NCBI RefSeq assembly: GCF_029395475.1
Contig: NZ_CP113917.1
Coordinates: 1,116,001-1,180,000, forward strand
Direction of reading: 5' to 3'
Source: Bifidobacterium sp. ESL0775
Lineage (GTDB): Bacteria; Actinomycetota; Actinomycetes; Actinomycetales; Bifidobacteriaceae
DNA length: 64,000 nt
Below are positions 11,308 through 62,870 of this stretch, one piece after another. A program made the position numbers and the translations under genes. The notes under the pieces were generated by a model. It saw only the letters and a list, made by a program, of their open reading frames with translations. It was not told the DNA's origin and did not search any database. Within the stretch, counting starts at the first letter, position 1, and each line of letters opens with the position of its first letter.

Positions 11308-11346
11308 CACTGGGTCCCATTCCTTTGGTTGGAATGGGACCCAGTG
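11308..11346 (-). terminator. strong hairpin ending the surface-protein transcript
   Basis: Perfect 16-bp stem, arms 11308-11323 and 11331-11346, with a 7-nt loop. It is the first strong hairpin downstream of the minus-strand surface-protein gene, about 330 bases past its stop. It also faces the end of the TAC operon. Confidence 0.65.
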
Positions 11347-15590: not shown

Positions 15591-16844
15591 ATGGAGAAGT
15601 TGACGGTGGCGGTGGCTGGAGCCAGCGGGTACGCCGGGGGCGAGATGCTGCGGATATTGGCGGCGCATCCGGCGTTCGAGGTCACCACGGTGACCGGGGA
15701 TTCCTCGGCGGGGGACAAGCTCGGCAAGCACATGCCGCATATTCCGGCGCTCAAGGACATGGTCATCGAGCCGACCACGCCAGAGGCGCTTAACGGGCAC
15801 GACGTCATCGTGCTGGCGTTGCCGCATGGCGTGTCTGGAGCGCTGGCCGAGAAGTCGCATGCGAATCGTGCGATCGTCGATCTGGGCGCTGATCACCGTT
15901 TGGAATCCAGCGACGCGTGGGCGCAATACTATGGCGGCGAGTTCCATCAGCCTTGGGTTTACGGCATGCCCGAGCTCATTATCGGCAAAAACGCTGAAGG
16001 CGATTATGTACGCCAACGCGGAAAGCTTATTGGCGATGATCAAAGTGCCGTTGATGGTGGCGGCAATGACGACACGGCAGATCCGCTTTTGACGGGAATG
16101 GATGCGAGCAATTCGAACGCCAAGTTCATCGCGGGTCCTGGTTGCAACGTGACGGCGGTGACGTTGGCTTTCCAGCCAGCGTTGGCAGAAGGGCTGGTGG
16201 AGACCGACGACATCGTGGCCGATCTGGCGGTTGGATATTCCGGGGCGGGCAAGAACCTCAAACGGACCAACCTGCTGGCGGCTGAGGCGATGGGGTCGGC
16301 GACGCCGTATTCCGTGGGCGGAGTGCATCGGCATATCCCCGAAATCGTGCAGAATCTCGCGCATGCGGCCTGTGCCGGGGCTGACGGCCATGTTCCTCGA
16401 TTCGACGCCAAGGCTGGTGATGAAAATGACCAGTCGCAAGGGTCAGGCGAGCCAAGCGAATTGGCGAAGGGCATCAAGGTCGGTTTCACGCCGGTGTTGG
16501 TGCCCATGGCCCGTGGCATCCTCGCCGTGGTCTCGGCCAAATTAAGCGACAAAGGCGCGGCGTTGAACGACGCGGATATCCGCGCGGCGTGGAGCAAGGC
16601 CTATCAGGGCCAGCGGTTCATCCAATTGCTGGATGAGGGCGAGATGCCCGCGACGGCCAACGTGCTGGGTTCCAACGCGGCCGAGGTGCAGGTGGCGGTC
16701 GACCGACATTCCGGGCGTCTGTATGGCTTCGCGGCCATCGACAATCTGAACCGTGGAACGGCCGGGCAGGCGGTGCAATCGCTGAACATCGCGCTCGGGC
16801 TTCCTGAGGACCAAGGACTGACAACGATAGGGGTGGCGCCATGA
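15591..16844 (+). CDS. argC: N-acetyl-gamma-glutamyl-phosphate reductase
   Basis: Third step of arginine synthesis: NADPH-dependent reduction of N-acetylglutamyl phosphate to the semialdehyde. Nucleotide-binding start VAVAGASGYAGGEMLRIL, and the active-site cysteine in AGPGCNVTAVTLAFQPA (about residue 185). At 417 residues it is longer than the usual ~345 because of two hydrophilic inserts: one of ~40 residues just before the catalytic cysteine, and one of ~20 (AKAGDENDQSQGSGEP). GGAAGGGG precedes ATG 15591. It overlaps argJ by four bases. Confidence 0.95.
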   Translation: MEKLTVAVAGASGYAGGEMLRILAAHPAFEVTTVTGDSSAGDKLGKHMPHIPALKDMVIEPTTPEALNGHDVIVLALPHGVSGALAEKSHANRAIVDLGADHRLESSDAWAQYYGGEFHQPWVYGMPELIIGKNAEGDYVRQRGKLIGDDQSAVDGGGNDDTADPLLTGMDASNSNAKFIAGPGCNVTAVTLAFQPALAEGLVETDDIVADLAVGYSGAGKNLKRTNLLAAEAMGSATPYSVGGVHRHIPEIVQNLAHAACAGADGHVPRFDAKAGDENDQSQGSGEPSELAKGIKVGFTPVLVPMARGILAVVSAKLSDKGAALNDADIRAAWSKAYQGQRFIQLLDEGEMPATANVLGSNAAEVQVAVDRHSGRLYGFAAIDNLNRGTAGQAVQSLNIALGLPEDQGLTTIGVAP

Positions 16845-23592: not shown

Positions 23593-23616
23593 AGAATCCT
23601 TATCTTTAAGGATTCT
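23593..23616 (+). terminator. small hairpin after argG
   Basis: Nine-bp stem AGAATCCTT (23593-23601) / AAGGATTCT (23608-23616) with a 6-nt loop, 30 bases past argG. No T run follows, so termination is uncertain. Confidence 0.4.
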
Positions 23617-23625
23617 GACTATGGG

Positions 23626-23708
23626 GAGACTCGGAGATATACAATGTTCGGGACACTCAAGGCCGTTCGGCCAAGCCTACGCCCGAACATCGCATATCTC
23701 CGAGTCTC
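23626..23708. repeat. long hairpin element 1 (type A core, plus orientation)
   Basis: Outer arms 23626-23652 and 23682-23708 (27 nt each) pair except at two positions, where the plus strand has A opposite C and the minus strand has G opposite T (wobble in RNA). Inside is the 35-nt type A core at 23650-23684, starting GGGACACTC, with a nested GGCC-GTTC-GGCC hairpin and ending TACGCCC. The identical core recurs at 35938-35972 inside different arms. TTTT follows the 3' arm. Confidence 0.85.
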
Positions 23709-23751
23709 TTTTGACTTATGTCTTGTAATAGATAATGCTCATTAGCCCATT

Positions 23752-23836
23752 GAGGTCTGGGGATATGCGTTGTTACGGCGTAAGACACGGCCGAGCGGCC
23801 AAGGAGCGTCCGGAACAACGCATATCCCCAGACCTC
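23752..23836. repeat. long hairpin element 2 (type B core, reverse orientation)
   Basis: Outer arms 23752-23774 and 23814-23836 form a perfect 23-bp stem. Inside is the 35-nt type B core at 23777-23811, starting GGCGTAAGACACGG, with a nested GGCC-GAGC-GGCC hairpin and ending AGCGTCC. The identical core recurs at 36117-36151. Read as its reverse complement the core clearly resembles type A, so elements 1 and 2 face each other across 43 bases. Confidence 0.85.
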
Positions 23837-23892
23837 CGCACAGTCAGTTATGTTTAAAGCGTTGTTGGTTAAGCAATGAAGGGACTTGAAGG

Positions 23893-27747: not shown

Positions 27748-27850
27748 CAGCAAGCTTTCATTGAAATGATTAGAATTTATTAGAAAATAACAATATTTGG
27801 ATGTCACGCTGGTAGCGCGAAACGGCAAAAGAAAAGCAAAGGTAAAGCAT

Positions 27851-30058
27851 ATGGCAGAAGAACAGCGCGGCAACCGCGACGGCAATTCATACGGTCACGG
27901 TTCGTCCCGTCCCAGTGGCGGCTACAGGGGTCACGGCGGGTATCGCGGCAACAATCGCGGCGGAGGTTTCCACAAGGGTGGCCACGGCGGATACCGTGGA
28001 CATGACGACGATAGGCGCGGCGGCTACCGCGGCAACGGCGGGCACCGCGACTTCCATCGTGACGGCGAACGTAGCGGCGGTTACCGCGGACACGGTGACG
28101 GGGATCGTCGTGATTTCCATCGTGATGGCGAACGTGGCGGCTATCGCGGCGATGGCGACCGTAGGGACTTCCATCGCAACGATGACCATCGCGGAGGCTA
28201 CCGTTCCGGTGGCTATCGTGGGCGTGACGACGACAGGCGCGGGGGTTACCGCGGCAATGGTGGTCACCGTGACTTCCATCGTGACGGTGAGCGTGGCGGA
28301 TACCGTGGTGACGGCGACCGCAGGAACTTCCGTCGCGATGACGACAGGCGCGATTTCCACAAAGACGGCGACCGCAGGGACTTCCACAAAGGCGGTTACC
28401 GCGGACACGACGATGACAGGCGCGGGGGTTACCGCGGCGGGGATGACCGTAGGGACTTCCATCGCAATGATGACCGTCGTGGCGGCTACCGTTCCGGCGG
28501 CTATCGCGGGCATGACGACGATCGTCGTGGCGGCTACCGCGGCAACGACCGTCGTGATGGCGATCGCCGTGACTTCCATCGCAACGACGACCGCAGGGGC
28601 GGCTACAACTCCCGCGGCAACGACCGTCGTGACTTCCACCGTGATGATCGGCGAGACGGCGATCGTGGCGGCTACAAGGGCTACAACGACCGTCGCGATG
28701 ATCGACGTGACGACCGCCGTGGCGGCTTCCACAATGACGGCCGTGAGGAATACATGCACAACGGCCCGCGCCGCAATTCAGATGGCACGGTCTCGTTCCC
28801 CTCGCAGAACCCGTATACCGACCGCCGTCCTGGCGAGCCGCGCATGCCCAAGGGCATGGAATGGTCGATGCTTTCCAAGGACGAGAAGGAACGTCTGAGG
28901 GGGCTTTCCAAGGAGCACGCCGAGAACATTGGACTGCACATCCTCGCCGCCTATGCGCTTGAGGAAAGCGACCCGAAGGCCGCGCGTGACCACGCCGAAT
29001 GGGTGGCACATCAGGCCTCACGCATCGATTTCTCGCGCGAGACGCTGGCGTTCATAGCTTACCGTCAGGGTGACTACAAGACCGCGCTGAAGGAGTTCCG
29101 TACCGCGCACCGCATGAATGGCTACAACGATTACCTGCCGTTCATCGCCGATTGCGAACGCGGCCTCGGCAACCCGAAGCGCGCCATCGAGATGGCGATG
29201 TCCGACGACGCCAAGGCGCTCACCGGCGAATCCAAGGCCGAGATGTTCCTGGTCTATGCCGGCGCACTCGGCGACTTGGGGCTTTGGGACAAGGCCGTCG
29301 ATGTGGTCAGCAAGCTGGCGGACACCAAGGGCCTTCCCGGTGCCTACCGCATGCGTGCGCTGCAGGCCGAGCAGTACTTCCTTGAGGAATCCGGCCATGG
29401 AGACGAGGCCGCCGACCTCGACACCACCATCGAGGCGCTTGAGAACAAGTACGCCGATGAGGATGAGGACGACGAGGACGCTGACGAGGTGGTCATCGAT
29501 TACGATCTCGAACGCCTGCCCGACGACATGATGGAAGAGCTCGGCATCACCGAAGACGACGCCCAGTATGCGCCCGATCCCTATGAGGATGACGACGATT
29601 ACGACCGTGATTCCGATTCCGAAAACTCCGATGGCGACGACGAAGATTCAGATGAGTCTGATGAGGATCATTCCGATGACGACGGTACCGATTCGGACGA
29701 GGCGTTAGGTGAGGAACTGGATACGGACGCCAATCTTGATGACCAGTCCCAGTCCGCGCTCGACCCGCAGACCCTGGAAGCCCAGGAAAGCGCCGAAGCC
29801 ACCGCCAAGGAAAATGCAGACAGCATGGAAGTCGTCGATGAGTCCGGTGAATCCGATGAGTCCGAGGATTCCGAGGCTGACCAAGAGGCGCAAGGCGAAG
29901 TCGGCGAGGACGACGAGGCCGAGACCGAAGGCGACGCAGATGACGACGAGAACGAGTTGTCCGCGGAGGAAACCACCGAGGGCGCCGAGGATTCGGACGA
30001 CCCCGCGGTGAAGCAGGAAGTCGCGGACGAAAAAGACGAGTCCGGCGAAGAGGAGTAA
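27851..30058 (+). CDS. RGG-repeat / TPR-like / acidic-tail protein
   Basis: 735 residues in three parts. Residues ~15-290 are a degenerate tandem array of Arg/Gly/Asp/Tyr units such as DDRRGGYRGNGGHRDFHRDG, an RGG/RGY-type RNA-binding style. Residues ~315-530 are helical and TPR-like (DYKTALKEFRTAHRMNGYND, then LGNPKRAIEMAM). The last ~190 are almost all Asp, Glu and Ser. The Arg-rich array and acidic tail have opposite charge. It sits where mycobacteria have the TPR gene Rv1691, between tyrS and a HAD phosphatase. ATG 27851 has AAAGG upstream; a TTG at 27797 is less likely. Role unknown; RNA binding is inferred. Confidence 0.8.
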   Translation: MAEEQRGNRDGNSYGHGSSRPSGGYRGHGGYRGNNRGGGFHKGGHGGYRGHDDDRRGGYRGNGGHRDFHRDGERSGGYRGHGDGDRRDFHRDGERGGYRGDGDRRDFHRNDDHRGGYRSGGYRGRDDDRRGGYRGNGGHRDFHRDGERGGYRGDGDRRNFRRDDDRRDFHKDGDRRDFHKGGYRGHDDDRRGGYRGGDDRRDFHRNDDRRGGYRSGGYRGHDDDRRGGYRGNDRRDGDRRDFHRNDDRRGGYNSRGNDRRDFHRDDRRDGDRGGYKGYNDRRDDRRDDRRGGFHNDGREEYMHNGPRRNSDGTVSFPSQNPYTDRRPGEPRMPKGMEWSMLSKDEKERLRGLSKEHAENIGLHILAAYALEESDPKAARDHAEWVAHQASRIDFSRETLAFIAYRQGDYKTALKEFRTAHRMNGYNDYLPFIADCERGLGNPKRAIEMAMSDDAKALTGESKAEMFLVYAGALGDLGLWDKAVDVVSKLADTKGLPGAYRMRALQAEQYFLEESGHGDEAADLDTTIEALENKYADEDEDDEDADEVVIDYDLERLPDDMMEELGITEDDAQYAPDPYEDDDDYDRDSDSENSDGDDEDSDESDEDHSDDDGTDSDEALGEELDTDANLDDQSQSALDPQTLEAQESAEATAKENADSMEVVDESGESDESEDSEADQEAQGEVGEDDEAETEGDADDDENELSAEETTEGAEDSDDPAVKQEVADEKDESGEEE

Positions 30059-35912: not shown

Positions 35913-35997
35913 GTTGGGGGTTCCGATAAACTTTCACGGGACACTCAAGGCCGTTCGGCCAAGCCTACGCCCGAGAAAGTTTATCGGAGCCCCCAAC
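35913..35997. repeat. long hairpin element 3 (type A core, plus orientation)
   Basis: Outer arms 35913-35935 and 35975-35997 pair over 23 positions with a single G-T wobble. The 35-nt type A core at 35938-35972 is identical to that of element 1, while the arms are unrelated in sequence. It begins 33 bases past the recN stop. Confidence 0.85.
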
Positions 35998-36089
35998 TCC
36001 TAAGTTTGATGGTTGCGTTTCGAATATAAATTATTCGCTTCAGGCTGTATCTTTGCGCAAGTGAGTTAAGTCGGTTTCTTTTAGCATTA

Positions 36090-36178
36090 GCTGGTGGTCG
36101 GGGCATGCGATGTTCGGGCGTAAGACACGGCCGAGCGGCCAAGGAGCGTCCCGAACATTGTATGCCCCGACCACCAGC
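36090..36178. repeat. long hairpin element 4 (type B core, reverse orientation)
   Basis: Outer arms 36090-36118 and 36150-36178 (29 nt) pair fully if two G-T wobbles are allowed on the plus strand. The 35-nt type B core at 36117-36151 is identical to that of element 2. It ends 19 bases before the start of the HAD gene, and 92 bases separate it from element 3. Confidence 0.85.
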
Positions 36179-62526: not shown

Positions 62527-62581
62527 GTCTGTATAGCTGGTAGCGGTTTCGAGACTTAGATTTGAGCCGTTATCGGTAAAT

Positions 62582-62620
62582 AACAAAAAGGCATCGGGTT
62601 ACGTCCGATGCCTTTTTGTT
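62582..62620. terminator. bidirectional terminator after leuS
   Basis: Perfect 16-bp stem, arms 62582-62597 and 62605-62620, starting AACAAAAAGGCATCGG and ending in CCTTTTTGTT. It has A and T runs on both sides. The remaining bases to 62870 show no gene; plus frames lack ribosome-binding sites. Confidence 0.9.
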
Positions 62621-62870
62621 ATCTGATTTTGTGTTTTCGTAATAAATGATTACGCCATTTGAGTGTCCGATAAGGTGAACTGATGTTGTAAAACAGGAAC
62701 CTTGATATATCTTTTTGCGGTGGCTCTTAGCTCAATGGGTCAATGTTGACGAATGTGGATGATTTGGCTTGCGGGAGCACGACACGCCTCAAATGTGGAT
62801 AACCCCGAGCGTTCGACCACAGTGGCCCGTTTGGCTCGACTTTCCATGGTGGGTGGACCATGCTTGAAGT

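What the first reader, a model, noticed from the sequence alone, without database searches (positions are those of the whole stretch)
23626..23836. Convergent pair of long hairpins with shared cores but site-specific stems (argG-argH gap)
Element 1 (23626-23708) and element 2 (23752-23836) each have a 35-nt core with a nested GGCC-N4-GGCC hairpin. The cores are enclosed by a 27-bp and a perfect 23-bp outer stem. The two cores are related to each other only when one is reverse-complemented, so the elements face one another. Both cores recur exactly at 35938-35972 and 36117-36151, but the outer stems do not, although they stay complementary. Ordinary MITEs have conserved ends and REP elements have conserved stems; here the inside is conserved and the arms drift in a covarying way. 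It could be a mobile or replicated element whose arms are made by template switching, a structured RNA, or a double-stranded RNase III substrate.
Basis: partly seen in the sequence, partly recalled or inferred. Interest (0 to 1): 0.85.

Follow-up and report, generated by a model that had tools for sequence, protein, structure and literature searches.

The report
Face-to-face hairpin repeats in Bifidobacterium
Bifidobacterium genomes carry a family of long hairpins, set face to face just after genes, whose centre is a conserved and interchangeable block while the arms differ from place to place yet stay complementary, which points to hairpins at the ends of messenger RNAs that also trade their centres between sites.

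Summary
Searching the two cores alone, ignoring arms, finds 17 copies in this genome; all 17 have complementary arms. A covariance model finds 29 places here and matches in 71 of 112 genomes of the genus; over the order 2 of 119 genomes match, both of this genus. Neighbouring copies face each other in 53 of 54 pairs; none of 199 unique places overlaps a gene called by my script, and 4 lie between divergent genes. The hairpin has three zones: a ~10-bp outer stem that mostly follows the site, a mid-stem with a family consensus, and a core in discrete types that swap between sites. Pairing is nearly perfect between convergent genes, where both strands are transcribed (2 of 391 cells not Watson-Crick, against 93 of 2584 between co-directional genes). 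I read it as a BIME/REP-like 3'-end hairpin acting in RNA, its core spread by short-tract exchange. It fails REP membership on length and transposase. Template switching as the maker of the arms is not supported. Function is inferred, not shown.

The parts
23626..23708 (+). Hairpin 1, core type A, downstream of argG, core forward (ACACTC..TACG); model match 23624-23710
23650..23684 (+). Core A (35 nt), one of 4 exact copies in the genome
23752..23836 (-). Hairpin 2, core type B, upstream of argH, facing hairpin 1; model match 23750-23838
23777..23811 (-). Core B (35 nt); its inner 30 nt occur 9 times exactly in the genome
35913..35997 (+). Hairpin 3, core type A, downstream of recN
35938..35972 (+). 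Core A, exact copy
36090..36178 (-). Hairpin 4, core type B, 20 nt before the HAD hydrolase gene (36198), facing hairpin 3
36117..36151 (-). Core B, exact copy

Best explanation
A Bifidobacterium family of roughly 83-94-nt intergenic hairpins that act in RNA at the 3' ends of genes, mostly in facing pairs, much as REP/BIME elements are thought to do. Inferred action: the transcript folds into a very stable stem that makes polymerase pause or terminate, or that blocks 3'-to-5' decay, so that neighbouring genes are set apart. Selection on the transcript keeps the outer stem paired while its sequence drifts at each site. The 35-nt core with its nearest stem bases is a separate block in discrete types, exchanged between dispersed hairpins through the shared mid-stem, so that cores stay alike over the genome while outer arms stay local. 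Shown: family, zones, covariation, facing pairs, position, core swapping at the same site. Inferred: action in RNA, termination or stabilisation, exchange by homologous recombination.
For: Covariation: 27 of 35 pairs change on both sides, 137 such cells against 33.8 in shuffles and at most 24 in slid structures. Complementary arms in 17 of 17 copies found by core alone. 0 of 199 places in called genes; 152 co-directional, 23 convergent, 4 divergent, 20 unplaced. Non-Watson-Crick cells in the outer 17 pairs: 2 of 391 between convergent genes, 93 of 2584 between co-directional genes (p 0.0003 by cells, 0.002-0.004 by arm cluster). Core type differs in 19 of 57 same-site comparisons whose outer arms agree at 8 or more of 10 positions. 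B. breve transcript ends are reported often at GC-rich stem-loops without poly-T (PMC5746004, passages).
Against: No transcript data. No T-run after the stems and no terminator-like site at either window locus. The core is transcribed in both orientations (35 forward, 31 reverse of 66 co-directional copies), so it is not one RNA motif. The lean to G.U over A.C on the transcribed strand weakened with more data: 44:19, then 47:25, p 0.06-0.10 once clusters count once. At one site the whole hairpin, arms included, differs between species inside shared flanks (tal-like site), so arms are not always local.
Confidence: 0.5

Rival explanations
1. A non-autonomous mobile element, REPIN-like: the facing pair is the mobile unit, each hairpin recognised as single-stranded DNA by an unidentified transposase; core types are transposon subfamilies.
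For: Facing order in 53 of 54 pairs; discrete core types shared by many genomes; presence and absence at the recN site among six close genomes (both hairpins in 2, right only in 2, none in 2).
Against: Y1/RAYT family PF01797 is absent here and in all but 7 of 112 genomes of the genus; no conserved ends: shared information falls to 0.66 bits or less just outside the stem and the outer stem is the least conserved part; no clean target duplication was seen; the tree does not tell gain from loss.
Confidence: 0.25
2. A DNA element: the core is a binding site for a chromosome-organising or replication protein, and the palindrome works as DNA.
For: The core is conserved whichever way it is transcribed; 67 of 80 sites in six genomes lie in the terminus half.
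Against: Does not explain avoidance of divergent gaps or the effect of convergent transcription on pairing; a plain binding site needs no 27-bp arms; the six genomes share sites.
Confidence: 0.12
3. Arms are kept complementary by template switching (quasi-palindrome correction), with no function.
For: Very few imperfect pairs at strongly varying positions (outer 17 pairs: 22 G.T and 21 A.C cells against about 1470 Watson-Crick in 89 copies).
Against: Conserved A.C pairs in the inner stem persist; imperfection depends on gene context.
Confidence: 0.07
4. Ordinary intrinsic terminators that happen to share a loop.
For: Strong stems close to gene ends.
Against: No T-run, no terminator-like site found at the two window loci; a 35-nt shared core is not needed in a terminator loop.
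Confidence: 0.04

Closest known systems
REP / BIME elements (definition seen in PMC12306157 passages)
   Same: Intergenic palindromic repeats in many copies, mostly downstream of genes, in oppositely oriented pairs, thought to act in RNA.
   Different: 83-94 nt instead of 14-40; centre conserved and outer stem variable; core exchanged between sites; no RAYT in this genome.
GTAG- and CGTC-tagged palindromic repeat super-families (PMC3733652: outline, passages, sections 6 and 14)
   Same: Facing dimers with 20-100 bp spacers, often of two different units (heterodimers); between unidirectional and convergent genes.
   Different: Those have 8-9 bp stems and 4-5 bp loops (CGTC families) and an unpaired tag; that paper lists CGTC repeats in five phyla without Actinobacteria, and the words Actinobacteria and Bifidobacterium do not occur in it.
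REPIN/RAYT systems (PMC3116915, abstract start in a listing)
   Same: Inverted pairs of hairpin repeats dispersed in a genome.
   Different: No Y1 transposase here; ends not conserved.
Correia/NEMIS repeats of Neisseria (recalled, no call)
   Same: Intergenic co-transcribed hairpin repeats, some cut by RNase III.
   Different: Those are MITEs with conserved terminal inverted repeats.
GC-rich stem-loops without poly-T at transcript ends in B. breve UCC2003 (PMC5746004, passages)
   Same: Stem-loops at transcript ends in a bifidobacterium, outside the intrinsic terminator class.
   Different: Reported there without a consensus; whether they include this family is unknown.

Membership tests
REP | extragenic | tested here: met
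   0 of 199 unique places overlap genes called by my codon-usage script
REP | palindromic stem-loop | tested here: met
REP | short, about 14-40 nt | tested here: not met
   aligned copies are 83-94 nt, long forms about 165-175
REP | highly similar copies with a common consensus | tested here: inconclusive
   core and mid-stem yes, outer stem no
REP | multiple copies per genome | tested here: met
   29 places; many REP families exceed 100 copies (PMC2817692, abstract start in a listing)
REP/BIME | neighbouring units in opposite orientation | tested here: met
   53 of 54 pairs
GTAG or CGTC super-family | unpaired GTAG or CGTC tag at one end | tested here: inconclusive
   a weak foot motif only, 0.57 bits or less upstream and 0.66 or less downstream over 170 copies; GAC/GTC occurs at the foot of many copies by eye
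REPIN/RAYT | RAYT (Y1) transposase in the genome | tested here: not met
   no PF01797 match in this genome; 7 of 112 genomes of the genus
MITE | conserved terminal inverted repeats and target duplication | tested here: not met
   the outer stem is the least conserved part; target duplication not tested separately
Intrinsic terminator | T-run right after the stem | tested here: not met
   no T-run in the pooled flanks; no terminator-like site at the two window loci
Any Rfam 15 family | match at or above gathering score | tested here: not met
   window: two tRNAs only; seven loci with short or long forms: only matches below gathering score, mostly to microRNA models
dsRNA substrate of RNase III | cleavage | not testable with these tools
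   needs RNA data

The most novel reading that the evidence does not exclude
The hairpin is a two-layer modular element: an outer stem that is a heritable, largely site-specific part kept paired by selection on the transcript, and a core cassette of about 40 nt that is exchanged between dispersed hairpins by very short-tract recombination through the shared mid-stem. The core would be the target of a dedicated bifidobacterial factor that acts on DNA in facing pairs, preferentially in the terminus half of the chromosome, and the loop would be an acceptor for larger structured modules.
Probability: 0.15. Interest if true: 0.85.

Novelty: new variant of a known kind. Interest (0 to 1): 0.62.

Why it matters
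It turns the usual picture of intergenic palindromic repeats inside out: the centre is conserved and swapped, the outer arms are local and covary. It offers an easily scored natural system for ectopic exchange of very short tracts in bacteria, a test of whether repeat hairpins are kept by selection on RNA, and a candidate answer to how bifidobacteria, where many transcript ends lie at stem-loops without poly-T (PMC5746004, passages), end or protect their messages.

Tried and rejected
Rejected: SbcCD cleavage of the hairpin tip as the trigger of core exchange; no SbcD match in this genome, over cut-off in 17 of 112 genomes, 12 of which still have hairpins against 59 of the other 95, so no negative association either. 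Rejected: integron attC, from a chance GTTRRRY-like motif in the long insert (consensus recalled); the matching partner box is missing. No match of one long-form copy in the phage or plasmid collections. No Rfam family.

The tree of 16 argH regions has 3 of 13 inner branches well supported; it groups this genome with G086 and suggests core C is older than A at the argG site, but does not settle gain or loss at the recN site. A first ortholog comparison had arms out of register and was replaced. Single-linkage clustering of arms merged 139 copies into one cluster and gave p 0.14 for the G.U lean; founder-based clusters gave 0.06-0.10; raw counts 0.013; the earlier smaller set 0.002 raw and 0.03 by cluster.

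Dropped before counts: antisense model matches at the same place, duplicate contexts, 20 copies without two placed neighbour genes (context tests), copies not mapped to the model alignment (22 of 136, 2 of 136). Copies were found by a model that rewards pairing; only one search tests complementarity without that bias.

Papers: eight searches, six of them with Bifidobacterium as a term, listed no description of this family. The library holds open-licence papers only, listings were capped, and I opened passages or sections of six papers (PMC3733652, PMC2267715, PMC8632094, PMC12306157, PMC5746004, PMC2788695), so absence from print is weakly supported.

Full report
What is there. The window carries four long hairpins in two facing pairs: 23626-23708 and 23752-23836 between argG and argH, and 35913-35997 and 36090-36178 between recN and a HAD-type hydrolase gene (argG, argH and recN pass NCBIfam cut-offs, the fourth gene passes only the general HAD-IA subfamily cut-off). 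They fold at -51.1, -60.4, -57.2 and -73.2 kcal/mol, z -7.3 to -12.2, with 0 of 200 shuffles as good each. The genome is one contig of 2,255,024 bases.

It is a family. Core A occurs 7 times with up to 3 mismatches (4 exact, 3 with two), the inner 30 nt of core B 10 times (9 exact, 1 with one); reversed control patterns gave 0 in both. These searches ignore the arms and so are a fair test of them: all 17 copies have complementary arms, on average 20.9 of 23 positions and 9.6 of the outer 10; arms taken from different copies agree at 4.9 of 10, and 19 of 272 such mixed pairings reach 8. Further core types turned up in partner hairpins. From 22 copies I built the covariance model R1. On that alignment 27 of 35 pairs show changes on both sides; 137 cells do, against 33.8 in shuffles and at most 24 when the structure is slid by 1-3 columns.

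R1 finds 29 places in this genome (53 rows, since the palindrome also matches in antisense) and matches 71 of 112 genomes of the genus at E 1e-6. Of 119 genomes drawn over the order, 2 match, this one and another of the genus; 1 of 56 genera. Two long forms not listed by R1 come on top.

Anatomy. Over 170 copies the information content is 0.16-0.84 bits at stem positions 1-10, 0.94-1.57 at positions 11-17, and outside the stem at most 0.57 upstream and 0.66 downstream, falling to 0.26 or less within a few bases. So the unit is the hairpin: a free outer stem of about 10 bp, a mid-stem near GGGATAT, an inner stem, and the core. The centre reads roughly ACxCTC-nn-GGCC-N4/5-GGCC-nn-(C/T)TTACG; 171 unique copies hold 58 distinct centre strings, the commonest 27 times in 12 genomes. 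Two inner pairs are A.C in 15 of the first 22 copies and in 30 and 26 of 89 later ones, never G.T.

Orientation and place. Pooling three model searches leaves 199 unique places of 245. None overlaps a gene called by my codon-usage script (checked by eye on the window); 152 lie between co-directional genes, 23 between convergent, 4 between divergent, 20 could not be placed. By gaps, 4 of 129 with an element are divergent against 4 of 23 gaps of 100 nt or more without one (Fisher p 0.019; the control is small). Of 54 neighbouring pairs within 700 nt, 53 face each other; the exception (L357, genome G083) belongs to a tandem group of three. In this genome all 9 pairs among the 29 places face. Among 66 co-directional copies the core lies forward in 35 and reverse in 31.

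Pairing and gene context. In the outer 17 pairs 2 of 391 cells between convergent genes are not Watson-Crick, against 93 of 2584 between co-directional genes (Fisher p 0.0003; 0.002-0.004 with one value per arm cluster). That fits a hairpin that must fold in both transcripts where both strands are read. Imperfect pairs between co-directional genes lean to G.U on the transcribed strand, 47 against 25 A.C (p 0.013); an earlier, smaller set gave 44:19, and with clusters counted once the lean is 41:25, 39:25 or 40:24, p 0.06-0.10. I treat it as a hint; deamination of the non-template strand could give the same lean.

The same site in other species. I read the argG-argH gap by eye in 13 close genomes including this one (of 30 loci fetched; R1 hit 11 of the 30, all among these 13). 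Eleven carry one or two hairpins there; in two (L213, L215) my pattern recognised no argG end beside argH. At the left position this genome has core A, two have B, six have C (one with a long insert) and two have mixed long forms. Elsewhere the arms stay while the core changes: after a gene that I read as smc, this genome and G085 share GTGGGGTCTTGGGATATACAATGTTCG but carry cores A and C. Against this, at a site after a gene that I read as transaldolase the whole hairpin, outer arms included, differs between pairs of species inside shared flanks. In numbers: of 57 same-site comparisons with at least 8 of 10 outer positions alike, 19 differ in core type. Identical cores are found in 16% of same-site and 15% of same-genome comparisons (193 and 727 comparisons) and in 53 of 233 and 134 of 943; outer arms and left flank agree at 0.53-0.64 of positions in same-site and 0.34-0.40 in same-genome comparisons. 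So the core says little about the site, the outer arm and flank say much. Identical cores go with higher identity only in the innermost ~6 pairs (0.80 and 0.60 against 0.46 and 0.48, same genome), so the exchanged block is about 40-45 nt, with the caveat that the innermost pairs partly belong to the core types. Among same-site comparisons with at least 8 of 17 pairs alike, 657 outer-stem differences are compensated, 230 have one side unpaired, 32 neither. Comparisons share copies, so these are not independent events.

At the recN site six close genomes show both hairpins in two (this one and G093), the right one only in two, none and almost no gap in two (L248, L250). The weak tree does not tell gain from loss; it does pair this genome with G086, whose argG-left core is C.

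Chromosome position. With dnaA as origin mark, 67 of 80 sites in six related genomes lie in the terminus half, 17 of 20 in this genome (positions). The genomes share sites, so the p-value printed there overstates the case.

Long form. Some copies carry an insert of about 85 nt in the loop with its own varying stems and the string GTGAGCGCGA...GAGCGCGAAGG; 15 contexts were found in the fetched loci, one of them (L240) without hairpin arms. Three examples fold into several stems.

How it most likely works. Place, facing order and pairing that follows gene context point to hairpins acting in RNA at gene ends, as proposed for REP elements (PMC3733652: outline, passages, sections 6 and 14). There is no T-run, so they are not textbook intrinsic terminators; for B. 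breve, transcript ends are reported often at GC-rich stem-loops of no clear consensus without poly-T (PMC5746004, passages). The core is not one RNA motif, since it is transcribed in both orientations; its upkeep must come from DNA: short-tract exchange between copies, a bound protein, or an unknown transposase. I favour exchange through the shared mid-stem, enzyme unknown: no SbcD match and no Y1 transposase match in this genome.

Known or new. It works like a BIME but fails REP membership on length and transposase, and no Rfam family reaches its gathering score on it. I found no description of it in eight searches of the held library. I rate it a new variant of a known kind.

Noticed in passing
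G000:C1:749929-750095 (L235:1501-1667), 2044197-2044343 (L236); partial copies at 15808-15864 (L237) and 668939-669000 (L240): A second structured module of about 85 nt sits in the loop of some hairpins and also occurs without the hairpin arms; its stems vary, its string GTGAGCGCGA..GAGCGCGAAGG is conserved.
   Followed up: partly
six genomes, including G000: Hairpin sites lie mostly in the terminus half of the chromosome: 67 of 80.
   Followed up: partly
window 36034-36066: The spacer between the recN-site hairpins has a stretch (near CGCTTCAGGCTGTATCTTTGCGCAAGTGAGT) that is recognisable by eye in L249, L251 and, less well, L252.
   Followed up: no
window 23593-23616: A separate small perfect hairpin, AGAATCCTTATC/ TTTAAGGATTCT with a 4-nt loop, lies just before hairpin 1.
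   Followed up: no
window 62580-62622 and 11308-11346: Two other perfect inverted repeats (18 and 16 bp, 7-nt loops) that look like terminators.
   Followed up: no
window 27797-30058: A 753-aa ORF with an N-terminal part rich in RGG/YRG/RDD repeats and an acidic C-terminal part.
   Followed up: no
whole genome G000 and genus: No SbcD match here, and over cut-off in only 17 of 112 genomes of the genus, which may bear on tolerance of long palindromes.
   Followed up: partly
L357 (genome G083), about 880-1220: The one exception to facing order: a tandem group of three hairpins, all in the same orientation, the third cut off in my print-out.
   Followed up: partly
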